In this document: positions 12,424 to 63,973 of the stretch, one piece after another
Layout: every line of letters begins with the position of its first letter
Numbering within the stretch: position 1 is the stretch's first letter
Assembly: GCF_024181725.1 (NCBI RefSeq)
Contig: NZ_CP028908.1
Coordinates: 744,001-808,000 of the forward strand
Direction: 5' to 3'
DNA from: Bradyrhizobium sp. WD16
GTDB taxonomy: Bacteria > Pseudomonadota > Alphaproteobacteria > Rhizobiales > Xanthobacteraceae
Length of the DNA stretch: 64,000 nt
Program-made: the position numbers and the translations under genes
The notes under the pieces: model-generated
Told to the model about the DNA's origin: nothing
Databases searched by the model: none
The model's input: only the letters and a program-made list of their open reading frames with translations

Positions 12424-13410
12424 ATGGAGCCGAAGCAACCGACCCTCGACCAGCTCCAGATCTTCCTCGCCATCGTCGAGACCGGCAGTTTCGCCGCCGC
12501 GGCGCGGCGGCTCGGCCGCGCCACCTCGGTGATCAGCTACGCCATCGCCAATCTCGAAGCCCAGCTCGGCCTCGAGCTGTTCGACCGCGGCGCCGCCCGG
12601 ACGCCGCAGCTCACCGAGGCTGGACGCGCGGTGCTGGCCGACGCCCGAAGCATCGCGCTCGGCGTCGGCGAACTGCTGGCGAAAGCGCGCGGCCTCGGCG
12701 CCGGGCTCGAGGCCGAAGTCGCCCTGGTGGTCGACGTGATGCTGCCGGCATCGAGCTTCGTCGCCGCAGTGGAGGCGTTCCAGACGGAATTCCCGACGGT
12801 GTCGCTGCGGCTCTATGTGGAGGGCCTCGGCGCCGCCACCCAGCTCGTGCTCGACGGCAGCGCCGATATCGGCATCACCGGTCCGGTGTCGCATCATGTC
12901 GACGAGCTCGAGGTCCGCCAGCTCGGCGCGATCCGCCTGGTGCCGGTGGCCGCCCCCCACCACCCTTTGGCGCAGATCGAAAAGGTGACGCTCGCCGCCG
13001 CGCGCAAGCACATCCAGCTCGTGCTGGCCGACCGCTCCGAATTGACCAGGGGGCAGGACTTCGGCGTGATCGCCTTGCGAAGCTGGCGCCTCGCCGATCT
13101 TGGCGCCAAGCATGCGCTGCTGCTCGCCGGCATCGGCTGGGGCAGCATGCCCGAGGCGATGGTGGACGATGATCTCGCCGCCGGGCGGCTGAAGCGGCTC
13201 GGCCTCGATGCCTGGGACAACGTCGCCTATCCGCTCCAGGCGGTGCATCGCTCCGATCGCGCGCTGGGCCCGGCGGCGCGCTGGCTGCTGGAGCGGCTGA
13301 CCGGCAACTGTCGCCGGGCCGAAGCGAAGTGGACGCCGGTGCGCGTGACGCAAACGCCGCAAAAACCGAAGCCGCCGCTCCGAGCCCGTCGGAGCGGAAA
13401 CGGGGGCTAG
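12424..13410 (+). CDS. LysR-family transcriptional regulator
   Basis: 328 residues. Start ATG at 12424, with AGGAGG five bases upstream. The winged HTH at residues about 8-65 (LDQLQIFLAIVETGSFAAAA; RATSVISYAIANLE) is followed by a periplasmic-binding-like effector domain. The basic C-terminal tail (PQKPKPPLRARRSGNGG) looks non-conserved and runs straight into a repeat: the stop is the TAG of the CTAG that begins the 13407-13663 array. It probably regulates the divergent wrbA-doxX genes; this rests on position only. Confidence 0.85.
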   Translation: MEPKQPTLDQLQIFLAIVETGSFAAAARRLGRATSVISYAIANLEAQLGLELFDRGAARTPQLTEAGRAVLADARSIALGVGELLAKARGLGAGLEAEVALVVDVMLPASSFVAAVEAFQTEFPTVSLRLYVEGLGAATQLVLDGSADIGITGPVSHHVDELEVRQLGAIRLVPVAAPHHPLAQIEKVTLAAARKHIQLVLADRSELTRGQDFGVIALRSWRLADLGAKHALLLAGIGWGSMPEAMVDDDLAAGRLKRLGLDAWDNVAYPLQAVHRSDRALGPAARWLLERLTGNCRRAEAKWTPVRVTQTPQKPKPPLRARRSGNGG

Positions 13411-13663
13411 TGTGGCGTTTCCAACGTTCGTATCCCACTGCAGCAGGCCCTCATACGAACGTTGGAAACAACGGGGACACTAGTGTGGCGTCTCGCAATT
13501 GCCTACCGCCTTCGCGGCAACCCTCTCGTAGGCAATTGCGAGACATAAGCCACACTAGCACTTTGATTTTGCTAGTGTCCCTATGTCTCCGAATGACCGT
13601 GCGAGTGCGAGGCAAACGTAGCGGTAATTCGGAGACGGGACACTAGCATCATTATGATTCTAG
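13407..13663. repeat. CTAG-bounded palindrome array 1 (B-like, A, spacer, D, spacer)
   Basis: Consecutive units share their CTAG ends: B-like 13407-13483, A 13480-13558, spacer 13555-13575, D 13572-13646, spacer 13643-13663. The A-spacer-D block (13480-13646, 167 bp) is the reverse orientation of the D-spacer-A blocks elsewhere. The first unit is a hybrid, with a type A left end (CTAGTGTGGCG) and a type B right end (GGGGACACTAG). The array fills the whole gap between two convergent genes. Its first CTAG holds the LysR stop and its last CTAG holds the stop of the minus-strand TPM gene. Confidence 0.9.
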
Positions 13664-14271
13664 ATGAGATAGATCCGGTCCGGCAGTTCGTCGCGCGGCG
13701 CGCCTTGCCGCGGAAAATGGCTGGCGAGCTTGTCGCCGCACAGTTCGATCGCGGCAACGAAACCGTCGCCGATCCGCCCTTCCCTGGCATGCGCGACGAG
13801 GAGGTCGACCGCCTGCTGCCATTCCGCCTGGGGCACCTTGGCCGCGATGCCGTCGTCGGCGACGATGCGGGCATAATGCTCGGCGAGCGAGACGAAGATC
13901 AGGATGCCGCAGCGATCCGCCTTGCGGGCGATGCCGCGGCTGGCGAACTGCTCGGTGGCCATGCGATAGGCCACCGCCCGCCGCGCCGCGCGCGGCATCA
14001 GGGCGACGCGCAGCGCCGGCCGTGACAGCACGCCGGCGAGGACGACGAACAGCAGGATCTGCGCCTCGAGCAGCCGCGTCACGCTGAGCGTCGTCGCCGC
14101 CATCAGAATCCAGGGCAGCGCCAGGGCTGCCGCTGCGGCGATCAGCATCGGCAGCGCGGTGGAATCGGCGGAGACGCGCGCCAGCACGCAGACGATCTCG
14201 CCCCGGCTCTTCTCCTCCGCGGCGCGGATCGCCGCGGCGACGCGCTGGCGTTCGTCGAGGGAAAGCGTCAT
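13660..14271 (-). CDS. TPM-domain membrane protein (second of pair)
   Basis: 203 residues. It starts at an ATG overlapping the upstream TPM gene's TGA. The N-terminal part reads LDERQRVAAAIRAAEEKSRG, then two adjacent hydrophobic segments at residues about 40-85. A C-terminal TPM-like half follows (GILIFVSLAEHYARIVADDG). This is the usual small partner in LemA-TPM-TPM clusters. The role is unknown; TPM domains have been linked to membrane-protein repair and phosphatase-like activity. Its stop codon is the TAG within the CTAG of the flanking spacer hairpin. Confidence 0.8.
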   Translation of the reverse strand: MTLSLDERQRVAAAIRAAEEKSRGEIVCVLARVSADSTALPMLIAAAAALALPWILMAATTLSVTRLLEAQILLFVVLAGVLSRPALRVALMPRAARRAVAYRMATEQFASRGIARKADRCGILIFVSLAEHYARIVADDGIAAKVPQAEWQQAVDLLVAHAREGRIGDGFVAAIELCGDKLASHFPRQGAPRDELPDRIYLI

Positions 14272-15209
14272 CACCAACTCCCCGAGGCGCCGCCGCCACC
14301 GGACGACCCGCCTCCTCCGGAAAACCCGCCGCCGCCGGACGAGCCGCCCGATGATCTGCTGCCGCTCGCCGCGCTGAAAAGAATGTTGAGCACGACGTTG
14401 AAGAAGAACCAGCGGAACCCGGGCGAGATGATCAGCAGCGTTACGAGCGCGATCAGCGCGGCGATCAGCACCCAGCTCACGGCCGGATCGGCCGGGCTGC
14501 TGTCGAGCCGCAGGTCCGGCTTCTGCTGCCATTCCGAGGAATCGGTGGTCAGCACCGTGATGATGTCGTCGACGCCGCGGGCGATGCCGTCGCCGAACTG
14601 GCCGGCCTTGAAGCGCGGCGTCATCGCATTGGCGATGATCACCTTGGAGAGCGCGTCGGTCAGCGTGCCTTCGAGGCCGTAGCCGACCTCGATGCGCACC
14701 CGCCGCTCGTTGGGCGCGACCAGCAGCAGCACGCCGTTGTTCCTGGCCTTCTCGCCGAGCTGCCAGCTGCGGAACAGGGCATTGGCATAGGGTTCGATCT
14801 CCTCGCCCTGGAGCGAGGAGACGGTGGCGACGACGAGCTGGATGCCGGACTTCGCCTCGAGGTCGGCGAGCTTCTGCGTGATCGCGTCGCGCGTCTCGGC
14901 CGGAATGATGTTGGCCTCGTCGACGACGCGGCCGGTGAGCTGCGGAAAGGTCGGCGCCGCGGCGGCGAGACCGAACAAGGTGAAAAACAGCAGCAGCGTC
15001 GCGAGCAGGCGCGAGAAAACCTCTCGCGCGCGTTGGATCAGGCGCGGTGCCGTGCCGCGAGCCGCACGGCTTACTGGGTCCCCCGGTCGAGCCGGGGGAC
15101 GACGGTGGGAGGATGGGGCGTGCGCATCGGGCCCGGGGGCCGCGCTGCCGCATTCAGATGTCGTCGCCCGCAACGGCCGGCGCGCATGCGTCTGGGATGG
15201 GGCGTTCAT
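14271..15209 (-). CDS. TPM-domain (YgcG-like) membrane protein
   Basis: 312 residues. The start at 15209 is preceded by GGAGG eight bases upstream, 25 bp after the lemA stop. The hydrophobic export segment LLATLLLFFTLFGLAAAA begins only at about residue 68. A TPM domain follows (VDEANIIPAETRDAITQKLA; VEVGYGLEG-type motif IEVGYGLEG), then a second membrane helix and a Gly/Ser-rich tail. The residues before the signal include SRAARG and ARPGDP, encoded by a GC palindrome (about 15078-15100). It looks as if an intergenic repeat was captured in frame, lengthening the N-terminus. Middle gene of lemA-TPM-TPM. Confidence 0.8.
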   Translation of the reverse strand: MNAPSQTHARRPLRATTSECGSAAPGPDAHAPSSHRRPPARPGDPVSRAARGTAPRLIQRAREVFSRLLATLLLFFTLFGLAAAAPTFPQLTGRVVDEANIIPAETRDAITQKLADLEAKSGIQLVVATVSSLQGEEIEPYANALFRSWQLGEKARNNGVLLLVAPNERRVRIEVGYGLEGTLTDALSKVIIANAMTPRFKAGQFGDGIARGVDDIITVLTTDSSEWQQKPDLRLDSSPADPAVSWVLIAALIALVTLLIISPGFRWFFFNVVLNILFSAASGSRSSGGSSGGGGFSGGGGSSGGGGASGSW

Positions 15210-15234
15210 CCCGCGCCTCCGCCCGAGGCCGGCT

Positions 15235-15834
15235 TTAGAACTTCACCTGGGGCGGGGTCTGGGCGCCTTCACCGGCGGTGAATTCGGCCATCGGCTTGGC
15301 GGAGCGGAAGAAGGTCGAGGCCCACAGCACGCCGGGGAAGGTGCGCAATTCGGTGTTGTAGGAGCGCACCGCCTCGATGTAGTCGCGCCGCGCCACGGCG
15401 ATGCGGTTCTCGGTGCCTTCGAGCTGCGACTGCAGGGCGAGGAAGTTCTGGTTCGACTTCAGGTCCGGATAGTTCTCGCTGACCGCGAGCAGCCGGCCGA
15501 GCGCGCCGGAGAGCTGGTTCTGGGCATCCTGGAACTGCTTGAGCTTGTCGGGATCGGTGAGCTGGCTGGCATCGATCTTGACCTGGGTCGCCTTGGCCCG
15601 GGCCTCGACCACCGCGGTCAGGACGTCCTTCTCCTGCTTGGCATAGCCCTGGACGGTGGCGACGAGATTGGGAATGAGGTCGGCGCGGCGCTGATAATTA
15701 TTCTGCACATCGGCCCACTTCGCCTTGGCCTGCTCCTCCAGCGTCGGGATGGTGTTGTAGCCGCAGCCCGCGACCGACAGCCCCAGGAGAACGACGGCGA
15801 CGAGATTGCGAAATTGCGGCAGCGTGATGCGCAT
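15235..15834 (-). CDS. lemA: LemA family lipoprotein
   Basis: 199 residues. Signal peptide ends in the lipobox LSVAGC, so the mature protein should be lipid-anchored. The LemA core follows: EEQAKAKWADVQNNYQRRAD, LIPNLVATVQGYA, and the conserved NYPDLKSNQNFLALQSQLEG. The C-terminus is short, as is usual. First gene of an operon with two TPM-domain genes; this trio is common in proteobacteria, but its job is not settled. Confidence 0.9.
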   Translation of the reverse strand: MRITLPQFRNLVAVVLLGLSVAGCGYNTIPTLEEQAKAKWADVQNNYQRRADLIPNLVATVQGYAKQEKDVLTAVVEARAKATQVKIDASQLTDPDKLKQFQDAQNQLSGALGRLLAVSENYPDLKSNQNFLALQSQLEGTENRIAVARRDYIEAVRSYNTELRTFPGVLWASTFFRSAKPMAEFTAGEGAQTPPQVKF

Positions 15835-16013
15835 GGGGACTCCTGGGGGAAACGACGGATGACTCGATTGAAGGTAAATTATCCGCCGCCGCAGGTCGAG
15901 AGCACATAAGCGAGCGCGGCGGAGTTAAGGAGTTGACATTCGCACCACGAGCCCGCGTCCAGGCAGGCGGCAAAAGTCAAATCCGCTCCACTATGCGGTT
16001 GGTGGTTGCGTGC
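15835..16013. other. Intergenic region upstream of lemA
   Basis: No gene. About 15976-15992, AAATCCGCTCCACTA resembles a decayed right end of a type C repeat next to the intact array that starts at 16014. The promoter of lemA must lie here, but I cannot point to clear -35 and -10 boxes. Confidence 0.4.
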
Positions 16014-16252
16014 CTAGTGCGGTGGATCTGACGCTCGTATCAGCGTTGCAGCGAATTCGTCGTACGAGCGTCAGATCCAAAACCACACTAGAATCATAAT
16101 GATGCTAGTGTCCCCTTGTTTCCAACGTTCGTATGAGCGCCTGCTGCAATGGGATACGAACGTTGGAAACAGGACACTAGTGTCCCTTTGGTTCTAACGT
16201 TCGTATGAGTGCTCGCTGCAAAGGGATACGAACGTTAGAACCGGGACACTAG
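16014..16252. repeat. CTAG-bounded palindrome array 2 (C, spacer, B, E)
   Basis: C 16014-16091, spacer 16088-16108, B 16105-16180, E 16177-16252, with neighbouring units sharing one CTAG. C-spacer-B spans 167 bp. C arms: GGATCTGACGCTCGTA and its complement. B arms: TTTCCAACGTTCGTAT. E is a B-like variant with GTTCTAACGTTCGTAT. It lies between lemA and the AttH-like gene, both on the minus strand, 56 bp after the AttH-like stop. Confidence 0.9.
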
Positions 16253-16307
16253 AAGAGCGTAAAGATTTTAACAGAGCCCGGCGCCGCGGGCCAGTCGCGC
16301 CCGCGCC

Positions 16308-17480
16308 TCAATAACCGGTCAGCTCCAGATAGCCGACGCCGCGCTCGCTGCCGCTGATCGTGATCGGCCCCTCCCAGTATTGATAGCGCGTGCCCATCCA
16401 GCTCTGCGGATTGAGCGGCGCGATGTCGAGCGCGAGCCTGCGCGAGGCAATGGCGATTTTCCACGAGGTCGGCAGCTCGCGGCCGGCGATGCGGGTCGCC
16501 GTGCCCGGCGTCAGCACGATGTCGGCGGGATCGAGCGGCGCCGCAGCGCCGTCGGCGCCGACATAGGTGCCGGCGAGGAAATGGGCGCCGTCGTTCTGGC
16601 GCAGGCGGAACAGCATCAGCTTGGCGCCGGACGCAAGATGCAACGAGAACCAGTCCCAGCCGGTCTGGTCCGCCGCCAGCGGCTGGCTGCTCCATTCATG
16701 GTCGAACCACGCCTCGCCGGTGACATCGATGGTCCGGCCGTCGACCACCAGCGATCCGGCGACGCGCAGGAACGGCTGGCTGTAGTAATAGGACGCCTGG
16801 CCGCGCGCCGACTTGCGGCTGAAGCCGGCCTCGCCCTGCGGCACCAGCGGATGACCGGCGGTGAGCGTCAGCGCATAGGAGAAATCCTTGCCCGACGCAT
16901 TCAGTTGCAGCGGCGCCATCAGCTCCGGCGCGGCGCCGGGCGCGCCCGCCATCCGCCAGTCGTCGATGAAGGCGAGGAAGGGCGCGGCGGTGACGCCGGC
17001 CTGATCGACGCCGCCGCGGGCGAAACGCTCGGCGAAGCGATGCGTCGTTGCGCTGGTCAGCGCCGCATGCCCCATCCAGAGCTGGCGGCTGGCAAAGCCC
17101 TCGGCCTGATCGCCGGGCCTGCCGGCCTGGCGGAACAGCGTCCACTGCACGCCATAGCGCGCGCCGCCGGCATCGCGCAGATTGGCGGTGAGGTACCACC
17201 ATTCGATGCGGTAGTCGGGATGGGCGCCGTGATCGGCGGGAAAGCTCAAGGCCTTGCCGGGCAGCACCCTGGCGAAGCCCTCCACCTCGGCGCCGAGATC
17301 GGAAAAGCCCTGGGCGTCAGCCGGGCCTGCGATCGGTCCAACCACAACCAGCGCTGCGACCACAGCGAACCGACAAAGATGATTCGTCCTGCCCGCGCTT
17401 GCCCGCCTTCGCTTAGAAGCTTCGGCGCGCCCGGCTCTTGTGCCGGGTCGAAGCCGACGGCGAAGACCGGGCGCGGGCAT
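16308..17480 (-). CDS. AttH-like lipocalin-domain protein (carotenoid 1,2-hydratase superfamily)
   Basis: The conserved part begins at the export signal (VVAALVVVGPIAGPADAQ) and runs about 330 residues. It has the AttH/CrtC-family signatures HPDYRIEWWYLTANL, WTLFRQAG, DHEWSSQPL and GWDWFSLHL. It probably acts in the periplasm, and pairs with the FtsX-type ABC transporter whose genes lie just upstream; AttH-plus-ABC clusters are recurrent. The start is uncertain: ATG 17480 is used here, while ATG 17543 and GTG 17363 are alternatives. The extra N-terminal coding includes a 'MAGLLVPAIHV' stretch, which comes from a common alphaproteobacterial intergenic repeat (about 17510-17545) and is unlikely to be true protein. 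Confidence 0.75.
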   Translation of the reverse strand: MPAPGLRRRLRPGTRAGRAEASKRRRASAGRTNHLCRFAVVAALVVVGPIAGPADAQGFSDLGAEVEGFARVLPGKALSFPADHGAHPDYRIEWWYLTANLRDAGGARYGVQWTLFRQAGRPGDQAEGFASRQLWMGHAALTSATTHRFAERFARGGVDQAGVTAAPFLAFIDDWRMAGAPGAAPELMAPLQLNASGKDFSYALTLTAGHPLVPQGEAGFSRKSARGQASYYYSQPFLRVAGSLVVDGRTIDVTGEAWFDHEWSSQPLAADQTGWDWFSLHLASGAKLMLFRLRQNDGAHFLAGTYVGADGAAAPLDPADIVLTPGTATRIAGRELPTSWKIAIASRRLALDIAPLNPQSWMGTRYQYWEGPITISGSERGVGYLELTGY

Positions 17481-17509
17481 CCGCGCCTGCGTGGATCGGC
17501 CGCGAAGTA

Positions 17510-17547
17510 AGACGTGGATGGCCGGGACAAGAAGCCCGGCCATGACG
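17510..17547. repeat. 'MAGLVPAIHV'-type intergenic palindrome
   Basis: TGGCCGGGACAAGAAGCCCG continuing to GCCATGACG is the GGCCGGGacaag..CCCGGCC palindrome. On the minus strand it reads MAGLLVPAIHV, a spurious peptide I recognise from many Bradyrhizobium-group genomes. It sits just upstream of the AttH-like gene and abuts array 3. Confidence 0.6.
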
Positions 17548-17553
17548 AGGAGG

Positions 17554-17794
17554 CTAGTACCCTGTTTCCGAAGTTCGTGAGTCATCTGCTGCATCCTCTG
17601 GACACGAACTTCGGAAACAAAAGGGTACTAGTGTCCTGCCTCCGAATTACCGTGCGAGCGTGAGGCAAACGAAGCGGTCATTCGGAGACATAGGGACACT
17701 AGCAAAATCAAAGTGCTAGTGTGGCTTATGTCTCGCAATTGCCTACGAGAGGGTTGCCGCGAAGGCGGTAGGCAATTGCGAGACGCCACACTAG
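17554..17794. repeat. CTAG-bounded palindrome array 3 (F, D, spacer, A)
   Basis: F 17554-17631, D 17628-17702, spacer 17699-17719, A 17716-17794. F is the only copy of its core in the window (TTTCCGAAGTTCGTG arms) and has the variant end CTAGTACCC/GGGTACTAG. D-spacer-A (17628-17794) is 167 bp. The right-hand CTAG supplies the TAG stop of the ABC permease gene. Confidence 0.9.
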
Positions 17795-20972: not shown

Positions 20973-20981
20973 GAGGCTCCC

Positions 20982-22262: not shown

Positions 22263-22302
22263 CTCTCGCCTTCGATCATGCGAGCAGGCCAGTGGCCACA
22301 TC

Positions 22303-22469
22303 CTAGTGCGGTGGATCTGACGCTCGTTTCAGCATTGCAGCGAGTTCTTCATACGCGCGTCAGATCCAAAACCGCACTAGAATCATCTTGATGCTAGTGT
22401 CCCCTTGTTTCCAACCTTCGTAGAAGCCCCTGCTGCGATGGAATACGAACGTTGGAAACGGGACACTAG
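22303..22469. repeat. CTAG-bounded palindrome array 4 (C, spacer, B)
   Basis: C 22303-22380, spacer 22377-22397, B 22394-22469, a 167-bp composite. The C and B cores have more mismatches than in other arrays (for example CCAACCTTCGTAG in the left B arm). It marks the left edge of the accessory island, upstream of the DUF445 gene. The roughly 100 bp from 22470 to the XRE-HEXXH gene end at 22571 hold an AGGCCTTAGAGGCCT hairpin near 22544 that could be a terminator. Confidence 0.85.
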
Positions 22470-22570
22470 CTAACGATATGCTTCAGGACCTCCCTGCAAC
22501 AATCGTATCGGCTCCACCTCCGCCGGCGCCGGCCGTTCCTGCTGAGGCCTTAGAGGCCTCAGCACTTTCC

Positions 22571-23773: not shown

Positions 23774-23774
23774 T

Positions 23775-30636: not shown

Positions 30637-31035
30637 CTAGTGTGGCGTCTCGCAATTGCTTATGCCCTTTGCGGCGAGCCCCTGTAGGCAATTGCGAGAC
30701 GCCACACTAGTGCGGTGGATCTGACGCTCGTATCAGCATTGCCGCGCGCTCTTCGTACGAGCGTCAGATCCAAAACCGCACTAGAATCATAGTGATGCTA
30801 GTGTCCCTTTGTTTCCAACGTTCGTAAAAGTGCCTGCTGCAATGGAATACGAACGTTGGAAACGGGACACTAGTGCGGTGGATCTGACGCTCGTATCAGC
30901 ATTTGCAGCGAATTCGTCATACGAGCGTCAGATCCAAACCGCACTAGAATCATATTGATGCTAGTGTGGCTTATGTCTCGCAATTGCCTACGACAGACCG
31001 GTCGCAAAGGCGGTAGGCAATTGCGAGACGCCACA

Positions 31036-31039
<4 letters not shown>
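30637..31039. repeat. CTAG-bounded palindrome array 5 (A, C, spacer, B, C, spacer, A)
   Basis: The longest array: A 30637-30710, C 30707-30784, spacer 30781-30801, B 30798-30873, C 30870-30947, spacer 30944-30964, A 30961-31039, each sharing a CTAG with the next. C-spacer-B is 167 bp. The first A is shorter (74 bp), with identical GTGTGGCGTCTCGC ends on both sides. The array fills nearly all of the 438-bp gap between the SDR start and the glutathione peroxidase stop; the last CTAG supplies that stop. Confidence 0.92.
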
Positions 31040-33813: not shown

Positions 33814-33918
33814 CTATAGCGCACCGGCGGCGGTGCGCTATAGTGTGGCGTCTCGCAATTGCCTACCGCCTTTGCGGCAAGCCTCTCGTAGGCAATTGCG
33901 AGACATAAGCCACACTAG
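33814..33918. repeat. Array 6: CTATAG hairpin fused to a type A palindrome
   Basis: 33814-33843 is a perfect palindrome with 13-bp arms (CTATAGCGCACCG) around GCGG. A type A element (33840-33918) begins within its right arm, so its left end reads TATAGTGTGG instead of CTAGTGTGG; its right end is normal. The unit lies between the DHDPS-family start and the ppc stop. Confidence 0.85.
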
Positions 33919-38708: not shown

Positions 38709-38874
38709 CTAGTGTCCTGTCTCCGAATTACCGCTTCGTTTGCCTCACCCTCGCACGGCAATTCGGAGACATAAGGACACTAGCAAAATCAAAAAGCTAG
38801 TGTGGCTTATGTCTCGCAATTGCCTACAGGGGCTTGCCGCAAAGGACATAGGCAATTGCGAGACGCCACACTAA
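38709..38874. repeat. CTAG-bounded palindrome array 7 (D, spacer, A)
   Basis: D 38709-38783, spacer 38780-38800, A 38797-38874. The last end has mutated from CTAG to CTAA. The composite is 166 bp against 167 in its sister copies. Lies upstream of the outer-membrane protein gene. Confidence 0.9.
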
Positions 38875-46595: not shown

Positions 46596-48127
46596 GGCCG
46601 TTTCTCTCCCTTGCGCATGATCGCGCGCATGATCTTTTCCTGGGTTGCCTCGCCGGCCGTGAATTCTCCGACGAAGGCGCCGTCATCCATGACGCAGATG
46701 CGGTCGCAGATGCCGAGCAATTCGGGCAATTCCGACGAGATCACGATCACGCCCCTGCCGGCCTCCGCCAGCTCGTTGATGATGCAGTAGATCTCGTACT
46801 TGGCGCCGACGTCGATGCCGCGGGTCGGCTCATCCAGGATCAGCACCCTGGGATCGGTCAACAGCCATTTCGACAGCACCACCTTCTGCTGGTTGCCGCC
46901 CGACAGGGTCCCGGTCTCCTGATAGACGTCGCGGCAGCGGATGCGCATGCGATTGCGATAGTCGCTGGCGAGCCTGAGCTCCCGCACCTCGTCGATCACC
47001 CGCCGCGGCGCCACCTTCTCGAGACTCGCCAGCGTGATGTTCTTGCGGACATCGTCGCCGAGGAGCAGGCCGAGCTGCTTGCGGTCTTCCGTGACATAGG
47101 CGAGCCCCGCGGCGATGGCGCGCGGCACCGTGGAGAGATCGACGTCCTCGCCGTCGAGGCGGGCGCGGCCGCTGATCCGGTGGCCCCAGGACCGGCCGAA
47201 CAGGCTCATGGCGAATTCGGTGCGGCCGGCGCCCATCAGTCCGGCGATGCCGACGACCTCGCCGCGGCGGACTTCGAGTCCGACATTCTTGACGACCTGG
47301 CGGTCGGGATGCAGCGGGTGATAGACCGACCAGTTTTCGACGGCGAACACCGGTTCGCCGATCCGCGACTCGCGCTCCGGAAAACGATGGGCCAGATCGC
47401 GATCGACCATGCTGCGGATGATGCGGTCTTCCTCCACCGCCTCGGCCCGGCAGTCGATGCCGTCGACGGTACGACCGTCACGCAGCACCGTGATGCGATC
47501 GGCGACCCGCGCCACCTCGCCGAGCTTGTGCGAGATCAGGATCGAGGCGATGCCCTGGTCGCGAAACGCGACCAGACGATCGAGCAGCGCGGCGCTGTCC
47601 TTTTCGTTCAAGCTGGCGGTCGGCTCGTCGAGGATCAAAAGCCGTACCTTCTTGGACAGCGCCTTGGCGATCTCGACCAGCTGCTGCTTGCCGACGCCGA
47701 GATCGGTGACCAGCGTATCGGGCCCCTCGGCTAGGCCGACCTGGGCGAGCAGTTCCCTGGTGCGCCGATAGACTTCATCGCGGTCGATCACGCCGAAGCG
47801 GGAGGGCGGATGCGACAGGAAGATATTCTCGGCGATCGACATCAGCGGGATCAGGGCGAGTTCCTGATGAATAATGATGATGCCGAGCGCCTCGCAATCG
47901 TTGATATCGCGAAAGCGCCGCTCCTCGCCGTCGAAGACGATGGTGCCCTCGTAGCTGCCGTAGGGATAGACGCCGCTCAGCACCTTCATCAGCGTGGACT
48001 TGCCGGCGCCGTTCTCGCCGACCAGCGCGTGGATTTCGCCCGGCGCGACGGTGAAACAGACGTCGCGCAGGGCCTGCACGCCGGCAAAGCTCTTGCTGAC
48101 GCCGCGCATCTCGAGAATCTCCGTCAT
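46592..48127 (-). CDS. gguA: Multiple-sugar ABC transporter ATPase, GguA/MmsA type
   Basis: 511 residues from ATG 48127 (GGAG upstream). Duplicated sugar-importer ATPase: first half Walker A GENGAGKST and LILDEPTASL, second half the degenerate RGEVVGIAGLMGAGRTE and LSGGNQQKVVLSKWL, VLILDEPTRGIDVGAK. Only the first half should hydrolyse ATP, as in RbsA/AraG. Follows chvE and precedes gguB. Confidence 0.9.
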   Translation of the reverse strand: MTEILEMRGVSKSFAGVQALRDVCFTVAPGEIHALVGENGAGKSTLMKVLSGVYPYGSYEGTIVFDGEERRFRDINDCEALGIIIIHQELALIPLMSIAENIFLSHPPSRFGVIDRDEVYRRTRELLAQVGLAEGPDTLVTDLGVGKQQLVEIAKALSKKVRLLILDEPTASLNEKDSAALLDRLVAFRDQGIASILISHKLGEVARVADRITVLRDGRTVDGIDCRAEAVEEDRIIRSMVDRDLAHRFPERESRIGEPVFAVENWSVYHPLHPDRQVVKNVGLEVRRGEVVGIAGLMGAGRTEFAMSLFGRSWGHRISGRARLDGEDVDLSTVPRAIAAGLAYVTEDRKQLGLLLGDDVRKNITLASLEKVAPRRVIDEVRELRLASDYRNRMRIRCRDVYQETGTLSGGNQQKVVLSKWLLTDPRVLILDEPTRGIDVGAKYEIYCIINELAEAGRGVIVISSELPELLGICDRICVMDDGAFVGEFTAGEATQEKIMRAIMRKGEKRP

Positions 48128-55188: not shown

Positions 55189-55190
55189 GA

Positions 55191-56759
55191 TCAGAGCTCC
55201 CCGGCTTCGGCGGCGACCGGCTCCGCCGCGCCGTCGGCGGCGATGGCGTCGAGGATGGCGTGGATTTCGACCGCGGCAGCCTCGAGGCTGCCGACATGGG
55301 CACGGTCGCGCAGCACGATGACGCGGTCGGCATAGGTGACGATCTCGTCGAGTTCCGACGAGATCACCAAAAGGGCGAGACCGCCGTCGCAAAGCTCGCG
55401 GATCAGCCGGATGATCTCGGCATGGGCGCCGACGTCGATGCCGCGGGTCGGCTCGTCGAGCACCAGCAGCCGCGGCGCGGTGGCGAGCCAGCGCGCCAGC
55501 AGCACCTTCTGCTGATTGCCGCCGGACAGAAGGCCGATCGCGCGTTCCGGATCCGGCGGCCGGATGTCGAGCATGGTGATGAATCGCCTGGCGATGTCAT
55601 CCTGCTCGCGGCGCGACAGCGGCCGCGCCAGACCGCGCTTCGCCTGCAACGCCAGAACGATATTCTCGCGCACCGAGAGATCGGCGATGATGCCTTCGGT
55701 CTTGCGCTCCTCGGGACAATAGCCGAAGCCGGCCCGCACCGCGTCGCGCGGTGAATGCAGCCGGATCGGCCGGCCCTCCACCGCGACGCCGCCACTGTCG
55801 GCGCGCTCGGCGCCGAACACCAGGCGGGCGGTTTCGGTCCGGCCCGAGCCGAGCAAGCCGGCGAGGCCGACGACCTCGCCCTGGCGCAGCTCGAGATCGA
55901 ACGGCGCGACATAGCCGGCCTTGCCGAAGCGGGTGAAGGTGGCGCGGGACGGCCCTTTTTCACGCTCGCCCACGGCGGCGCGCCGACTTGTGGTCTCGGC
56001 GAGCTCGCGGCCGAGCATCATCCGGATCAGCTCGAGCCGCGGCAGCGACGCGGTCGCCCGCTCGCCGATCAGGCGGCCGTTGCGCAGCACCGTGACGCGG
56101 TCGCAGATCTCGTAGACCTGATCGAGGAAGTGGCTGACGAAGACGATGCCGATGCCGCGGCGGGCAAGCTCGCGCATCACCCCGAACAGGACCTCGACCT
56201 CATGGCGATCGAGGCTGGCGGTGGGCTCGTCGAGGATCAGGACGCGTGCGGACAGATCGACGGCCCGGGCGATGGCGGCGATGTGCTGGACCGCGACCGA
56301 ATAGCTGCCGAGCGGCGCGGCGACGTCGATGTGCAGGCCGAAGCCCGACAGCAGGGCCGCCGCACGGCGGCGCATCTCGCCTTCTCGCACGAAGCCGAAC
56401 CTTGTCGGCTCGCGTCCGAGAAAGAGGTTCTGCGCCACCGACAGATTGGGCAGCAGATTGACCTCCTGGTAGACCGTGGCGATGCCGGCTTCGACCGCCG
56501 CCTTGGCGGAACGCGGCGCCACTTCGATGCCGCCGAGGCGCACGGTACCGGCATCGCGCGGCACCACGCCCGTGACCAGCTTGATGAGCGTCGACTTGCC
56601 GGCGCCGTTCTCGCCGAGCAGGGCGTGGATCTCGCCGGCGCGCAGGGTGAAGTCGACGCCATCGAGGGCCCGCAGGCTGGCAAAGCTCCTGGTCAGCCCG
56701 CGCACTTCGAGCAACGCATCACCGTGCTGCGGCAGCGGAAGATCAACACCGCGATCCAT
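55191..56759 (-). CDS. ytfR: Sugar ABC transporter ATPase, YtfR type
   Basis: 522 residues from ATG 56759. Duplicated ATPase: GENGAGKST and RVLILDEPTASLD in the first half, LGSGRTETARLVFG, LSGGNQQKVLLARWL and LVLDEPTRGIDVGAH in the second. Energises galactofuranose- or arabinose-type uptake. A GTG at 56837 would add 26 residues; the shorter start fits the family better. Confidence 0.9.
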   Translation of the reverse strand: MDRGVDLPLPQHGDALLEVRGLTRSFASLRALDGVDFTLRAGEIHALLGENGAGKSTLIKLVTGVVPRDAGTVRLGGIEVAPRSAKAAVEAGIATVYQEVNLLPNLSVAQNLFLGREPTRFGFVREGEMRRRAAALLSGFGLHIDVAAPLGSYSVAVQHIAAIARAVDLSARVLILDEPTASLDRHEVEVLFGVMRELARRGIGIVFVSHFLDQVYEICDRVTVLRNGRLIGERATASLPRLELIRMMLGRELAETTSRRAAVGEREKGPSRATFTRFGKAGYVAPFDLELRQGEVVGLAGLLGSGRTETARLVFGAERADSGGVAVEGRPIRLHSPRDAVRAGFGYCPEERKTEGIIADLSVRENIVLALQAKRGLARPLSRREQDDIARRFITMLDIRPPDPERAIGLLSGGNQQKVLLARWLATAPRLLVLDEPTRGIDVGAHAEIIRLIRELCDGGLALLVISSELDEIVTYADRVIVLRDRAHVGSLEAAAVEIHAILDAIAADGAAEPVAAEAGEL

Positions 56760-56889
56760 TCGACAGCTTACCTCGGCGGCCGGCGCTTCCCGGGGCGCGT
56801 CCGCATTCACCTTCAGGAACGTGGGATAAGGTGTCACGGGCGGGACCGGCGGAACGCGTTCCAGCGGTCCCGCATGCGCGGCATACGGC

Positions 56890-58413: not shown

Positions 58414-58935
58414 ATGGCGCACGCGATCAGGCCGACGGGAGTGGAATGCCTTCTCGGCGACGAAGAATTGATCGTCTCGAAGACCAATCTCAAAGGCCAC
58501 ATTACCTACGCCAACGACGTGTTTCTGCGCGTCTCCAAATACCCGGTGAAGGAGATCATCGGCGCCCCCCACAGCGTGATCCGTCACCCCGAGATGCCGC
58601 GCTGCATCTTCAAACTGCTCTGGGATACCATCGGGGCGAAGCACGAGATCTTTGCTTATGTCGTCAACCTGGCGGCGGACGGCGGCCACTACTGGGTGTT
58701 CGCCCATGTGACCCCGACCCTGGACGCCCAGGGCAACATCCTCGGCTTCCACTCCAACCGGCGCAAGCCCGACCGCGCCCAGGTCGAGCGGATCAAACCG
58801 CTCTACACCCAGATCGTCGCCGAGGAGAACCGGCATCCGAACCGCAAGGACGGCATGCTGGCCGGCTACGACATGCTGATGGGCCATCTTCAGAAACAAG
58901 GCATCGGCTATGACCAATTTGTGCTCTCTCTCTAA
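58414..58935 (+). CDS. PAS-domain sensor, Aer-like (aerotaxis)
   Basis: 173 residues. GGAGG precedes ATG 58414 by seven bases. A PAS fold with the Aer pattern: [34 protein letters not shown] and [14 protein letters not shown], which bind FAD in Aer. It lacks HAMP and signalling domains, which are supplied by the next gene (overlap of 26 bp), so the receptor is split in two. Probably senses redox state. Confidence 0.85.
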
Positions 58936-60214: not shown

Positions 60215-60237
60215 GCTGACGGCGGGAGGGCGGCGCC

Positions 60238-60888
60238 CTATTTCGAATCCGCGCGGCCGGCCATCGCGGCCTCGACGTCGGCATCGCGAAGCTGGCTGAA
60301 GTCGCGATAGAAGTAGCCGATGGCGCCGAACGGCTCGGGCGTTTCCAGGCAGACCACCTCATCGACCAGCGGCCGCAATGCCTCGATCGTCTCGGGCGGT
60401 GCGACCGGGACCGCGAGCACCAGCTTGGCCGGCCGCTGGCGGCGGATGGCCTGCAGCGCCGCCTTGACGGTGGCGCCGGTGGCAATGCCGTCGTCGACGA
60501 CGATGACGACGCGGCCGGCGACCGGCTCGCGCGCGCGATCGCCGATATACTGGCGCCGCCGGCGTTCGATCTCCGCGACCTCGTGCTGGTAGGCGGCTTC
60601 GAACTCCTGCGGGGTGACGCCCGAAAACGCGATGACCTCCTCGTTGCGCACGACGAAGGGCGGCGTGCCCTCGGCCACCGCGCCCATGGCGAGCTCCGGC
60701 TGCACCGGCACGCCGATCTTGCGCACCAGCATCAGGTCGAGCGCGCCGTCGAGCGCGGACGCGATCTCGACGGCGACCGGGACGCCGCCGCGCGGCAGGG
60801 CGAGGATCAGGGGCTTGTGCCCCTTGTAGCGCGACAGGGCTGCGGCCAGTCGCCGTCCGGCATCGGTGCGGTCGCGGAACGGCATCAT
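60238..60888 (-). CDS. Phosphoribosyltransferase-domain protein
   Basis: 216 residues. PRPP loop VIVVDDGIATGATVKAAL, N-terminal DRTDAGRRLAAALSRYKGH and ALPRGGVPVAVEIA. This is the stand-alone phosphoribosyltransferase group often beside dienelactone hydrolase-like genes and a PRPP synthase, in loci linked to hypoxia or stationary phase. Substrate base unknown. Overlaps the hydrolase stop by 4 bp. Confidence 0.85.
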   Translation of the reverse strand: MMPFRDRTDAGRRLAAALSRYKGHKPLILALPRGGVPVAVEIASALDGALDLMLVRKIGVPVQPELAMGAVAEGTPPFVVRNEEVIAFSGVTPQEFEAAYQHEVAEIERRRRQYIGDRAREPVAGRVVIVVDDGIATGATVKAALQAIRRQRPAKLVLAVPVAPPETIEALRPLVDEVVCLETPEPFGAIGYFYRDFSQLRDADVEAAMAGRADSK

Positions 60889-61589
60889 CGCGCTCCTTGC
60901 GATCCGGGATCGGTGCGTGGGTGATCGGTGCGAACGAGGTGCTGCGTGAACCAGTCGGCCGCCAGATCGATGACCTGTTCCAGCGCGCCCGGCTCGGGAA
61001 ACAGATGCGTGGCGCCGGGCACGATGGCGAGGCGCTTGACCCCGGCGAGCTGTTCGGCGGCCCCCTCGTTGAGCTCGATCACGCCGACGTCGGCGCCGCC
61101 GACGATCAGCAGCGTCGGCGACGTCACCCGCGCCAGGGCGGCATCCGCGAGATCCGGCCGGCCGCCCCGCGAGACCACCGCGCCGACCTTCGGCGAGCGC
61201 GCCGCGGCGACCAGCGCGGCAGCAGCGCCGGTGCTGGCGCCGAACAGGCCGAGCGGCAGCTCGCGCAACCGCGGCTGCCGGTCGATCCATTCGAGCACGT
61301 GAAGCAGCCGTTCCGACAGCAGCGCGATGTCGAAGACCATGCTGCGGTCATCCTCCTCGCCGACAAGCAGCAGATCGAACAGCAGCGTGGCGATGCCGCG
61401 CTGCTGCAGGCCCTCGGCCACCTGCCGGTTGCGCGGACTGAAGCGGCTGGAACCGCTGCCGTGGGCGAACACTACCAGGGCGGCCGGCCGATCGGGCACG
61501 GTCAGCGTCCCCGCGAGGCCGAGCGGCGGGATGTGGACATCCTGGGAGCGCAGCGCCGGACGCGCGCCGGGGGGCCTCGTTGACGGCAT
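60885..61589 (-). CDS. Dienelactone hydrolase-like alpha/beta hydrolase
   Basis: 234 residues. VVFAHGSGSSRFSPRNRQVA is the family start; nucleophile Ser in LFGASTGAAAAL; acid in LIVGGADVGVIELN; His in PGATHLFPEP. Divergent from the APH-like gene and upstream of the phosphoribosyltransferase in one operon. Substrate unknown; probably cytoplasmic. Confidence 0.85.
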   Translation of the reverse strand: MPSTRPPGARPALRSQDVHIPPLGLAGTLTVPDRPAALVVFAHGSGSSRFSPRNRQVAEGLQQRGIATLLFDLLLVGEEDDRSMVFDIALLSERLLHVLEWIDRQPRLRELPLGLFGASTGAAAALVAAARSPKVGAVVSRGGRPDLADAALARVTSPTLLIVGGADVGVIELNEGAAEQLAGVKRLAIVPGATHLFPEPGALEQVIDLAADWFTQHLVRTDHPRTDPGSQGAR

Positions 61590-61670
61590 GGCAAAAGGCT
61601 AACGCCGCGAGACGGCACTTCGTTGACCAATGTCAAACGTTATCCGGGGCCGCCGGTTATCTCTTTCGCA

Positions 61671-62858
61671 ATGCACGATGATCGGGACCATCCGATGCTG
61701 CGGCAGAGCCACGGTGCCGACACAGCGATTCCTCAGGAATCCGTTCCTCAGGGAAATGTTCCTCAGGAAGCTGTTCCGCAGGTCGCCGCCGGCGCCGGAC
61801 CGGACCTTGCCGCCAAGGTCCGGTTCCTCTGTGACAGAGGCAGCTACCGCGACGGCGTCGACGAGGTCGAGCTGCGCGAGACCCACATGTCCTTCATCTT
61901 TCTCGCCGGCGATCGCGTCTACAAGCTCAAGAAGCCGGTCCGCTTTCCCTATCTCGATTTCTCCACCCTGGCGCGGCGGGGCGCCGCCTGCCGGGCCGAA
62001 GACCGCCTCAACCGGCGCCTGGCGCCCGACGTCTATCTCGGCGTCGTGCCGCTGACCTGCGACGGCGGAGAATTCGCCATCGGCGGCGCCGGCGACGTCG
62101 TCGACTATCTCGTCGCCATGCGCCGCCTGCCTGACCACGCCACCCTCGACGACGCCCTGCGCCACGGCGCGCCGCCACCGCGCCAACTCGACCTCGTCGC
62201 CGCAACGCTCAGGCGCTTCTACGCCCATGCGGCGCGGGGGCTACAGCCGGGAGAGCCGGACATCGCCGCCCGCCTGAGCCTCCTCGGGGTGGATTGCAGC
62301 ATCCTCCACGATGCCCGCTTCGCCCTGCCGCAGGCGCCGATCAACACCAGCGCCGCGGCGCTGCGGCGCTTCATCGCCGAGCGCCGCCAGCTCCTGCTCC
62401 AGCGGGTGCGGGCGCGCTACGTCGTCGACGCCCACGGCGACCTGCGGCCGGAGCACATCTGGCTCACCGCGCCGCCGATCATCATCGACTGCCTGGAGTT
62501 CGACGACCGCCTGCGCTCGCTTGATCCGCTCGACGAGGTCGCCTTCCTGCATCTCGAATGCGAACGGCTCGGCCGCCGCGACGCCGGCGAACGGATCCGA
62601 AAGGCCCTCGCCCGGCCGCTTGCCGAGAACGAAGCCGACGGCCTGTTCCTGTTCTATCGCTGCCAGCGGGCCCTGCTGCGCGCGCGGCTCGCGATCGCCC
62701 ATCTCTACGACGCCCATCCGCGCACGCCGGAGAAATGGCCAGCGCAGGCCCGCGCCTATCTGGCGCTGGCCGCCGCCGACGCCCGCAAACTGGAGCGCTG
62801 TCTCGGCCGAGGACGTCGAACTCAGAAGGCCAGAAGATCGTCGATGGCGCGGCACTGA
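61671..62858 (+). CDS. APH-like kinase family protein (COG2187 N-terminal type)
   Basis: 395 residues from ATG 61671; TTG 61623 is an alternative. Central region RETHMSFIFLAGDRVYKLKK and RRGAACRAEDRLNRRLAPDV matches the APH-like part of COG2187 proteins. Catalytic-type HGDLRPEHIWL and the acidic IIDCLEFDDRLR motif are present. The usual C-terminal AAA-ATPase half is missing, so this is the short form. Residues about 20-40 are four tandem xPQxx units (IPQES, VPQGN, VPQEA, VPQVA). Its 3' end overlaps the convergent PRPP synthase gene by 37 bp. Confidence 0.8.
   Translation: MHDDRDHPMLRQSHGADTAIPQESVPQGNVPQEAVPQVAAGAGPDLAAKVRFLCDRGSYRDGVDEVELRETHMSFIFLAGDRVYKLKKPVRFPYLDFSTLARRGAACRAEDRLNRRLAPDVYLGVVPLTCDGGEFAIGGAGDVVDYLVAMRRLPDHATLDDALRHGAPPPRQLDLVAATLRRFYAHAARGLQPGEPDIAARLSLLGVDCSILHDARFALPQAPINTSAAALRRFIAERRQLLLQRVRARYVVDAHGDLRPEHIWLTAPPIIIDCLEFDDRLRSLDPLDEVAFLHLECERLGRRDAGERIRKALARPLAENEADGLFLFYRCQRALLRARLAIAHLYDAHPRTPEKWPAQARAYLALAAADARKLERCLGRGRRTQKARRSSMARH
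61730..61792 (+). repeat. Tandem 15-bp repeat inside the APH-like gene
   Basis: Four in-frame copies of a unit close to GTTCCTCAGGAA + 3 bases, giving the xPQxx peptide repeat. It is short and located in the variable N-terminal region, so copy number may vary between strains. Confidence 0.7.
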
Positions 62859-63817
62859 TGCAGGCCATCGATGGCGGCACCGAGCAGCGGCGCCACGGCG
62901 ACGACGCGCAGCTTGTCGCGCGCCGGCCCCGCCACCAGGCGAAACGCCGGCACCGCGTCGGTGACCAGGATGCGGTCGATCACCGGGTCGGCCAGCGCCT
63001 CCGCCGCCCCCGGCATGAACAGGCCATGGGTGACGCAGGCGATCACCCGCCGCGCCCCGCGCTGGCGTGCCGCCAGCGCCGCCCGCACCAAGGTGCCGCC
63101 GGTGCTGATCAGGTCGTCGACGATCACCGCGGTGGTGTCGTCCACATCGCCGACGAACAGGCTGCCGGAGACCACGCCGGCGCTGCGATGCTTCTCGGCG
63201 AAGGCATTGGCGACCGGCCGGCCGAGCGCCGCCTGGAGCTTGTCGCGGAGCCGCTCGGCCCGCTTGCCGCCGCCGAGATCGGGCGACACCACGCAGGCCG
63301 CATCCGCGCCGATCTCCTCGACGATCGCCCTGATCAGCGCCGGCGCCGCGGTGAGCGCCACCGCGCGGCAGCGGAAGGCGTTCTCGAAGGCGGCTTCGTT
63401 GTGGACGTCGAGGGTCACCACCGCATCGACGCCGACCGCCTCGAACAGGGCGGCGACGTAGCGCGTCGTCACCGGATCGTTGCTCTTGGTGCGACGGTCC
63501 TTGCGGGCGTAACACAGATAAGGCGTCACCGCGGTGATGCGCGCCGCCCCGGCATCCTTAAGCGCGGCGATGAAGAACAACAGCCGGCACAGCTTGTCGT
63601 TCGGGCTGTGGAGCGGGCCGCCATGGAGGCTGTGGACCACATAGACGTCGGCGCCGGCGACATTGCCCAGCGGACGCGCCTTGTGCTCGCCGTCCTCGAA
63701 GTCGCGTTCCTCGTGCGGCGACAGCGGCCGGCCGAGCACCCCGGCGACGGCGACGCCGATCGCCTCGCTGCCCTCGAGGGCAAACAGCTGCAACGCCTCG
63801 TCGGGGGAATTCGTCAT
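62822..63817 (-). CDS. Ribose-phosphate pyrophosphokinase-like protein
   Basis: 331 residues. PRPP-binding VIVDDLISTGGTLVRAAL, LCYARKDRRTKSNDPVTTRY as the flexible catalytic loop, and VSPDLGGGKRAERL. It resembles PrsA but with a divergent N-terminus (HEERDFEDGEHKARPLGN), so is likely the accessory copy found near stress-type phosphoribosyltransferases rather than the housekeeping enzyme. Would make PRPP for the transferase at 60238-60888. Confidence 0.85.
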   Translation of the reverse strand: MTNSPDEALQLFALEGSEAIGVAVAGVLGRPLSPHEERDFEDGEHKARPLGNVAGADVYVVHSLHGGPLHSPNDKLCRLLFFIAALKDAGAARITAVTPYLCYARKDRRTKSNDPVTTRYVAALFEAVGVDAVVTLDVHNEAAFENAFRCRAVALTAAPALIRAIVEEIGADAACVVSPDLGGGKRAERLRDKLQAALGRPVANAFAEKHRSAGVVSGSLFVGDVDDTTAVIVDDLISTGGTLVRAALAARQRGARRVIACVTHGLFMPGAAEALADPVIDRILVTDAVPAFRLVAGPARDKLRVVAVAPLLGAAIDGLHQCRAIDDLLAF

Positions 63818-63897
63818 GGCAGGACCATTTGCGCAGGACCATTTGCGATTGCGTCAGCCGGACGGGAACGCTGCACCGGACCCCGTGTTCCGGAACG

Positions 63898-63973
63898 CTA
63901 GTGTCCCTCTAGTTCTAATCTTCGTACGAGCGCTCGCTGCAAAGTGATACGAACGTTGGAACCGGGACACTAG
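63898..63973. repeat. CTAG-bounded palindrome (type E), single copy
   Basis: Starts CTAGTGTCCCTCTAGTTCTA and ends ACCGGGACACTAG. It is the only lone element and matches E at 16177-16252; both have a 15-bp arm pair of the form TTCGTA..ATACGAACGTT. Upstream of the PRPP synthase start. Confidence 0.85.

What the first reader, a model, noticed from the sequence alone, without database searches (positions are those of the whole stretch)
13407..63973. A family of CTAG-bounded intergenic palindromes with interchangeable hairpin cores
Eight loci plus one half copy (3437-3461) hold units of 74-79 bp that all begin CTAGTGTGG, CTAGTGTCC or CTAGTGCGG (once CTAGTACCC) and end in the complement. At least six unrelated core arms occur: A TCTCGCAATTGCCTA, B TTTCCAACGTTCGTA, C GGATCTGACGCTCGTA, D TCTCCGAATNACCG, E GTTCTAACGTTCGTA and F TTTCCGAAGTTCGTG. 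Shared ends with unrelated cores are not the usual REP or MITE pattern, where the whole unit is homologous. All copies are intergenic. I do not know a described family with this design.
Basis: seen in the sequence. Interest (0 to 1): 0.8.

Follow-up and report, generated by a model that had tools for sequence, protein, structure and literature searches.

The report
Paired-hairpin mobile repeats with CTAG ends
Hundreds of short palindromes between the genes of this alphaproteobacterium are halves of a widespread 165-base double-hairpin jumping element whose moving enzyme is still unknown.

Summary
In detail: 20 units at 8 loci in the window and 846 strict matches in the 5.95 Mb chromosome (39 for the reversed-pattern control). 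The design was misread. Each core nearly always has its own ends (191 of 199 units in 1.2 Mb). The cores are versions of one 26-bp hairpin with a one-sided A-rich bulge, and stems changed on both sides together in 305 cells against 6 one-sided changes. The repeating entity is a ~165 bp pair: hairpin, usually a 13-nt linker, mirror-image hairpin (here mostly D with A and C with B). The same layout, with other stems, is scattered across Alphaproteobacteria. Filled-versus-empty sites in relatives and nested copies show precise insertion at a CTAG-like 4-base target, seen once when empty; filled copies carry CTAG or a target-like 4-mer on each side. These look like non-autonomous mobile elements, built like BIMEs/REPINs and the two-armed CIR repeats. 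They do not carry GTAG, and the 846-copy genome has no RAYT above the family cut-off, only one RAYT-related Y1 gene. No linked transposase was found. New variant of a known kind.

The parts
3438..3461 (.). half copy of an A unit, one arm with its CTAG foot
   Evidence: direct sequence
13407..13483 (+). hybrid unit: B stem with one TGTGG end and one TGTCC end, fused by a shared CTAG to the next unit
13480..13646 (.). composite A(+) - 13-nt linker - D(-)
16014..16180 (.). composite C(+) - 13-nt linker - B(-); folds mainly as two separate hairpins, -54.7 kcal/mol, z -12.4
16177..16252 (-). single E unit sharing CTAG with the composite
17554..17631 (+). single F unit (CTAGTACCC), shares CTAG with the next composite
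17628..17794 (.). composite D(+) - 13-nt linker - A(-); no such element at the orthologous place in G001 and G002
22303..22469 (.). composite C(+) - 13-nt linker - B(-)
30637..30710 (.). A unit that has lost its bulge, fused by a shared CTAG
30707..30873 (.). composite C(+) - 13-nt linker - B(-)
30870..31039 (.). recombinant composite C(+) - C-type linker - A(-); the whole cluster 30637-31039 is absent at the orthologous place in G001 and G002
33840..33918 (+). single A unit, outer foot mutated to ATAG
38709..38874 (.). composite D(+) - 13-nt linker - A(-), last foot CTAA
63898..63973 (-). single E/B-like unit with a decayed stem

Best explanation
The units are halves of a non-autonomous mobile DNA element of about 165 bp. 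It consists of two different but homologous hairpins, each with a 26-bp stem, a 3-4 nt A-rich bulge and a ~25-nt loop. They stand in mirror orientation around an AT-rich linker, usually of 13 nt, and each hairpin foot is closed by CTAG/CTAG. An enzyme encoded elsewhere recognises the pair and inserts it precisely at a CTAG-like tetranucleotide. SHOWN: architecture; precise insertion; nested insertion; one 4-nt target when empty and a 4-mer (CTAG or target-like) on each side when filled. INFERRED: insertion duplicates the 4-nt target, and the foot of each hairpin (outer and inner tetranucleotide) then behaves as a palindrome that is corrected, usually to CTAG, sometimes so that the inner copy changes to match the target. 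INFERRED: because an insertion normally leaves new CTAG sites, later copies nest in older ones and build the mosaic arrays that looked like interchangeable cores. UNKNOWN: the transposase. I think trans mobilisation by a transposase that duplicates 4 bp (DDE-type or other) is likelier than a classical RAYT.
For: Own genome: 846 strict copies, control 39. Of 66 junctions of 13 nt in 1.2 Mb, 55 are bulge-to-bulge head-to-head, 38 of them D/A and 14 C/B; 33 further junctions share one CTAG. Linker is 13 nt in 144 of 186 unique composites. Nested copies: at chromosome 89667-89995, 76524-76853 and 257276-257604 a B/C pair sits in the CTAG between one D or A hairpin and its own D/A-type linker. Covariation in 55 units from 14 genomes: 96.8% of cells paired, 305 double-sided changes, 6 one-sided. 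Near lack of G-U intermediates points to DNA, not RNA. Seven insertion places with a relative holding the empty site: in the nearest empty relative the target reads CTAA, CTGT, CGGG, TCAG, CTGA, CTGG or CGAG. All seven can pair with CTAG at 3 or 4 of 4 positions, G.T included; chance about 0.14 each. Outside this genome 23 of 38 hairpins with both feet changed are exactly complementary. Stem apices of the two hairpins of one composite resemble each other more than shuffled partners (75 distinct arm pairs outside this genome, 0 of 2000 permutations as high).
Against: No transposase is linked: two Y1 models found 0 hits among 6121 ORFs in 192 loci, no transposase was recognised in the clusters shown, and no longer copy carrying a gene was found in what was held then. 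A clean 4-bp duplication is seen at one place (CTGG); at five others filled copies read CTAG on both sides although relatives show another 4-mer, so correction or a mutated target must be assumed. One site has an extra base, another a 2-base length difference. More distant empty relatives also show 4-mers that pair poorly (CCGT, AAAT, CGCG). At three of seven sites the same spot is filled in separate lineages whose nearer relatives are empty, so hot spots, loss and transfer between species are unresolved. In this genome none of 20 altered hairpin feet is compensated. All seven empty sites come from two other genera; in this genus the three compared places are too diverged to read a target. Registers were read by eye.
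Confidence: 0.72

Rival explanations
1. They are unusually long REP/BIME (REPIN) elements moved by a RAYT-related or other single-strand HUH transposase. The inner CTAG is the guide that pairs with the CTAG-like target or cleavage site.
For: Paired inverted hairpins with bulges; a tetranucleotide at the hairpin foot complementary to the outer one, as described for IS200/IS605 and REP guides (PMC6006769, passages). Targets pair with the inner CTAG. Y1 genes are commoner in genomes with 5 or more copies (7 of 11 against 4 of 25, Fisher p 0.008). This genome's one Y1 protein is RAYT-related (E 1e-20) and lies about 120 bases from a broken D unit.
Against: That Y1 protein is below the RAYT cut-off (74 against 80 bits) and has other repeats at its flanks. 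No strong RAYT match in G000, G012, G021, G027 or G033, all with 12 or more copies, nor in the 20 other class-level positives, of which 6 have only weak matches (25-38 bits). All ten RAYT loci inspected in relatives carry their own GTAG palindromes. Both ends, not one, can be target-like (G470, G449).
Confidence: 0.23
2. Ordinary MITEs: deletion derivatives of an IS with TG...CA ends and a 4-bp target duplication (IS3-, IS21-, IS481- or IS5-like), in which the internal hairpins are incidental.
For: TG after the first CTAG: T in 55 of 55, G in 54 of 55 aligned units; 4-bp duplication CTGG.
Against: No IS with matching ends recognised in the sequence held. Inner halves, bulge and linker length recur across the class, which a deletion derivative does not need. 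IS-family traits here are recalled, not tested.
Confidence: 0.25
3. Host-maintained functional DNA or RNA structures (terminators, mRNA stabilisers, nucleoid protein sites).
For: Strong hairpins (z -9.4 and -12.4), mostly intergenic.
Against: No enrichment at convergent gene ends: 25 of 109 clusters against 132 of 589 background spacers. Places are empty in relatives. Strict copy number varies from 0 to 846 in one bacterial family.
Confidence: 0.05
4. One reading: common ends with freely switched, unrelated cores.
For: Rare hybrids such as 13407-13483 and mixed composites such as 30870-31039.
Against: 191 of 199 units have core-specific ends; stems covary in one alignment.
Confidence: 0.03

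Closest known systems
REP / BIME / REPIN elements with RAYT (TnpA-REP) transposases
   Same: Short, mostly intergenic inverted hairpin pairs with linkers, hairpins with a bulge, mosaic arrays, tetranucleotide at the hairpin foot, non-autonomous.
   Different: CTAG at both feet instead of 5' GTAG/GTGG; 26-bp stem and ~25-nt loop, outside the REP sizes given in PMC3733652 and PMC6006769; no RAYT above the cut-off in the genome with most copies; RAYTs of relatives carry other REPs.
CIR repeats (Caulobacter CcrM-associated intergenic repeats, CIR1-4; Chen and Shapiro 2003, seen only through the review PMC2229807)
   Same: Alphaproteobacterial, intergenic, two long inverted repeats forming two arms joined by a linker.
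   Different: About 110 bp against 160-170 bp; GANTC at the loop of one arm there, but in only 1 of 66 non-TCC loops in this genome and 28 of 130 elsewhere. CIR sequences could not be fetched, so a common origin is open.
CGTC-tagged REPs (PMC3733652, passages)
   Same: Mostly alphaproteobacterial head-to-head dimers, often heterodimers, with no known transposase association.
   Different: CGTC ends, 8-9 bp stems, 4-5 nt loops.
MITEs
   Same: Non-autonomous, short, precise insertion, target duplication at least at one place.
   Different: Two complete hairpins instead of one pair of terminal repeats; no parent IS found.

Membership tests
REP (RAYT-associated) | GTAG or GTGG tetranucleotide 5' of the hairpin | tested here: not met
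   In a set found without requiring CTAG (pattern fixes only its last G) the outer 4-mer is CTAG in 69 of 81 and GTAG in 2; the 55 aligned units were selected for CTAG ends
REP (RAYT-associated) | RAYT gene in the genome, usually beside its REPs | tested here: not met
   No strong RAYT match in G000, G012, G021, G027, G033 or the 20 other class-level positives; G000 has one RAYT-related Y1 protein below the cut-off, about 120 bases from a broken D unit; 0 hits of two Y1 models in 192 loci
REP (RAYT-associated) | stem 5-13 bp and loop 2-20 nt (PMC3733652), or basal stem 7-20 bp with loop 2-5 nt or a further stem of 1-10 bp (PMC6006769) | tested here: not met
   10+16 bp stem with ~25-nt loop
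BIME/REPIN architecture | two inverted repeat hairpins with a spacer forming the mobile unit | tested here: met
   55 of 66 13-nt junctions head to head; the inserted piece at compared sites is the pair
CIR repeats | two arms joined by a linker, intergenic, alphaproteobacterial | tested here: met
   110 of 123 clusters intergenic or at a gene edge
CIR repeats | about 110 bp | tested here: not met
   160-170 bp in 186 composites; shorter units exist in G115, G333, G386 and G394
CIR repeats | GANTC in the loop of one arm | tested here: inconclusive
   1 of 66 non-TCC loops in this genome, 28 of 130 in others; GANTC lies in the TCC stem in 97 of 112 elsewhere
CIR repeats | sequence similarity to CIR1-4 | not testable with these tools
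   source paper not held; no genome search left
CGTC REPs | CGTC end, 8-9 bp stem | tested here: not met
MITE | target-site duplication | tested here: inconclusive
   Clean at one place: CTGG once in G448 and G443, twice in G449; same 4-mer on both sides in G470; five other sites need correction to CTAG
MITE | parent IS with matching ends | tested here: inconclusive
   none recognised in 1.2 Mb of this genome or 192 loci; whole genomes not available
IS200/IS605-type mobilisation | target retained at one end only, no duplication | tested here: not met
   G449 and G470 carry the same non-CTAG 4-mer on both sides; two cases only

The most novel reading that the evidence does not exclude
These are the cargo of an undescribed transposition system scattered across the class. 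In it the foot of a DNA hairpin works as a base-pairing guide for a CTAG-like target and afterwards as a template that rewrites the target (or the guide) into a perfect palindrome, so each insertion normally creates new CTAG landing sites for the next one.
Probability: 0.3. Interest if true: 0.8.

Novelty: new variant of a known kind. Interest (0 to 1): 0.52.

Why it matters
In this genome a family with no recognised RAYT partner reaches REP-like copy numbers (846 strict matches), with a structure that recurs across much of Alphaproteobacteria. This suggests that REP-like paired hairpins arose, or are moved, in more than one way. The filled and empty sites give a direct handle on a mechanism, and the genus of G027 (29 genomes held) is a ready set for testing guide-target pairing and hairpin-templated correction. 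The family also accounts for 363 of 569 CTAG tetranucleotides in the 1.2 Mb examined, in a genome that otherwise avoids them.

Tried and rejected
RAYT/Y1 as mobiliser: tested with Pfam PF01797 and a nine-sequence RAYT alignment; not accepted as a simple answer although the copy-number correlation is nominally significant and this genome has one RAYT-related Y1 gene. An IS200 gene beside a unit in G035 (L112) looked like a parent, but it sits outside a complete composite, at its outer foot. A gene between facing units: four such pairs in 1.2 Mb, none recognised as an autonomous element; one holds IS3-like ends (recalled label). RNA role: Rfam at its gathering cut-offs found 0 matches in the window; covariation nearly lacks G-U. 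Terminator role: no excess at convergent genes. Plasmid and phage copies: a chimeric composite hit 9 Roseibium/Labrenzia plasmids; two further queries found nothing in plasmids and one nothing in phages. Gene-stop test for one- or two-sided target use was too weak: outer A ends 8 of 41, D 5 of 42, B 2 of 19, C 1 of 17, inner or other ends 2 of 56, non-unit CTAG 12 of 208. Replication-strand bias was not tested. Papers: 10 text searches showed no paper on CTAG-bounded paired hairpins in their listings; most subscription papers are not held.

Rows dropped or limits: A1 used 55 of 58 selected sequences, themselves chosen for diversity from 245 units with CTAG ends. Composite counts use 186 unique of 200 and leave out 2 hairpins as out of register. 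The class scan lists at most 12 matches per genome and used stricter filters. The reversed-pattern control is not a fair null outside this genome: it exceeds the real count in six of the ten other genomes of the family with 5 or more matches (G002, G012, G014, G018, G021, G027 and also G033 by one, seven in all if G033 is counted), though the matches listed there read as these hairpins.
Full report
CHECK. The units are real. The strict pattern gives 17 matches in the window against 0 in 100 shuffles; reading and a looser finder add three, making 20 units at 8 loci plus the half copy. In the whole chromosome (G000, 5,945,179 bp, one contig) the pattern matches 846 times against 39 for the reversed control. 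In the 1.2 Mb I fetched CTAG occurs 569 times where about 3,789 would be expected from base composition, and 363 of the 569 are unit ends. With a crude gene caller 110 of 123 clusters are intergenic or at a gene edge and 13 lie inside called ORFs.

ENDS AND CORES. Cores sort with their ends: A 63 of 65, C 31 of 33, B 32 of 33, D 59 of 62, E 4 of 4, F 2 of 2. Aligned in one orientation, 55 units from 14 genomes show one structure: 10 bp, a 4-column A-rich bulge on the 3' side, 16 bp, ~25-nt loop with a conserved GC. Of 1428 cells 96.8% pair (shuffles 75.0%). There are 305 double-sided changes and 6 one-sided (G-U) ones. An RNA helix would be expected to show G-U intermediates (general knowledge), so the constraint most likely acts on DNA. 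Palindrome correction by template switching is an alternative to selection and is not excluded.

THE REAL UNIT. The bulge gives each unit a direction. Of 66 junctions of exactly 13 nt, 55 are bulge-to-bulge: 38 D/A, 14 C/B, 3 others. Another 33 junctions share one CTAG. The composite is 160-170 bp in 186 unique composites, with a 13-nt linker in 144 of 186. Two window composites fold mainly as two separate hairpins, z -9.4 and -12.4. Some exceptions resolve as nested insertions: at 89667-89995 (A[C B]D), 76524-76853 (A[B C]D) and 257276-257604 (D[B C]A) the inserted B/C pair has its own linker (11 nt in the third) and lies in the CTAG before the D/A-type linker of the outer element. Arrays therefore can grow by insertion into the CTAG of older copies (inference).

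DISTRIBUTION. Of 60 genomes searched (this one included) 21 have at least one strict match, but low counts include chance matches; 11 of the 36 genomes of the family, this one included, have 5 or more. The reversed control often exceeds the real count outside this genome, because CTAG is rare and GATC is not; the matches listed for G002, G005, G012, G027 and G033 nevertheless read as these hairpins. Stems differ from genome to genome, while the plus-linker-minus layout stays in 22 of 23 neighbouring pairs listed. A covariance model hits 21 of 385 genomes drawn from the class at E<=1e-4, this one included. Beside units no transposase family was recognised in the ORF clusters shown, and two Y1 models hit none of 6121 ORFs in 192 loci; the IS200 gene of L112 was found separately.

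INSERTION SITES. At three window places the orthologous spacers of G001 and/or G002 lack the elements, but are too diverged to read a target. Closer relatives give seven places. (1) G182/G286: empty CTAA, filled CTAG on both sides. (2) L140 site 1: empty CTGT in G448, G449 and G460, CTAT in G466, CCGT in G470, AAAT in G459; filled CTAG/CTAG with one extra base. (3) L140 site 2: empty CGGG in G467, G449, G443, G451 and G469, CGCG in G466, G446 and G460; filled CTAG/CTAG in G448, CTGG/CGCG in G027, and CGAG/CGAG in G470, where a different composite sits in the opposite orientation. (4) L135 first composite: empty TCAG in G467, G443, G451 and G461, TTAG in G466 and G470; filled CTAG/CTAG in G027, G448, G449 and G469. 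(5) L135 second composite: empty CTGA in G467, G443 and G460, CTGT in G466 and G446; filled CTAG/CTAG. (6) L446: empty CTGG in G448 and G443, CTGA, CTTG or TTGA in others; filled CTGG/CTGG in G449 with inner feet CCAG/CCAG, and CTGG/CTGG in G027. (7) G467: CGAG in G027, filled CTAG/CCAG, with a two-base length difference on the left. Registers were read by eye from the flanks. Taking the nearest empty relative, all seven targets pair with CTAG at 3 or 4 of 4 positions counting G.T, chance about 0.14 each; among 4-mers of the more distant relatives CCGT, AAAT and CGCG pair at only 2, 1 and 2. At sites 3, 4 and 6 the same spot is filled in separate lineages while nearer relatives are empty; hot spots, loss and transfer cannot be told apart.

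FEET. In the pattern set, where only the last G is fixed, 69 of 81 outer 4-mers are CTAG. Over all composites outside this genome, 240 hairpins: 173 both CTAG, 11 outer changed, 18 inner changed, 38 both changed, of which 23 are exactly complementary and 15 not; independence would predict 11.4 with both changed. In this genome, 130 hairpins: 110 both CTAG, 12 outer changed, 5 inner changed, 3 both changed, 0 complementary. So compensation is seen only outside this genome. My reading: the outer foot is target-derived and pairs with the inner foot; correction then runs either way, giving CTAG at most sites and CTGG/CCAG and the like at others. This is inference.

MOBILISER. Y1 genes are commoner in family genomes with 5 or more copies (7 of 11 against 4 of 25, p 0.008), and strong RAYT matches weakly so (6 of 11, counting G035's interrupted copies, against 4 of 25, p 0.04; fragments in G001 and G031 not counted). 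Against a classical RAYT: G000 has no RAYT over the NCBIfam cut-off. Its one Y1 protein is RAYT-related (E 1.1e-20, 74 bits against a cut-off of 80), has other repeats at its flanks and lies about 120 bases from a broken D unit, so it is not excluded as the mobiliser. All ten RAYT loci inspected in relatives are flanked by other, GTAG-type palindromes. Of the 20 other class-level positives 14 have no match to the RAYT alignment and 6 only weak ones (25-38 bits), as has 1 of the 10 class or order genomes without units. No autonomous copy was found. TG...CA ends with a 4-bp duplication would suit a DDE transposase (recalled knowledge).

COMPARISON. The pair resembles BIMEs/REPINs (PMC3116915, PMC8266576, PMC6006769: passages seen) in layout but fails the GTAG, size and RAYT tests. 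CGTC REPs (PMC3733652, passages) differ in tag and size. CIR repeats (review PMC2229807, passages and one section; original not held) share the two-arm-and-linker layout and the host class, but are about 110 bp with GANTC at a loop. That feature is in 1 of 66 non-TCC loops here and 28 of 130 elsewhere. I cannot exclude that CIR repeats and these elements are one superfamily, which would lower the novelty.

VERDICT. A real, large family of non-autonomous double-hairpin elements, scattered across the class; new variant of a known kind; mobiliser unknown; interest moderate.

Noticed in passing
G000 1-1,200,000 (L052-L111): CTAG is about 7-fold under-represented (569 against ~3,789), and 363 of the 569 are ends of these units.
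   Followed up: partly
window 17472-17556: A second, unrelated repeat (ATGGCCGGG...CCCGGCCATGACG, which looks like a CGTC-type REP, label recalled) with many partial matches in G001 and G002.
   Followed up: no
L051 1014-1920 (G000 55,306-56,212): A RAYT-related Y1 gene with GGTGACAGTGCACTTAATT flanking repeats lies beside a broken D unit.
   Followed up: partly
L116, L117, L118-L121, L123, L124, L127, L128: RAYT genes of relatives, each with its own palindromes (GTAGCCCGGATTGAGCG..., GTAGGGCG..., GTAGGATGGG...) (two of them scanned against NCBIfam).
   Followed up: partly
L112 1187-2030 (G035): An IS200-type gene sits directly beside a complete composite at its outer CTAG-like foot.
   Followed up: no
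L135 first composite, G027 and relatives: Insertion may have changed the end of the neighbouring gene from TGA to TAG without loss of frame (TCAG to CTAG on the other strand); inference from the flanks.
   Followed up: no
G000 319090-320741: Three B units with identical flanking linker and partner letters, probably a local segment duplication.
   Followed up: no
window 17628-17702: D unit whose loop is inverted relative to its bulge, as if the loop had been flipped between the arms.
   Followed up: no
window 46730-48115 and 55353-56711: Two pairs of repeats 73% and 75% identical, each about 8.6 kb apart, probably parts of paralogous transporter genes (gene names not tested).
   Followed up: no
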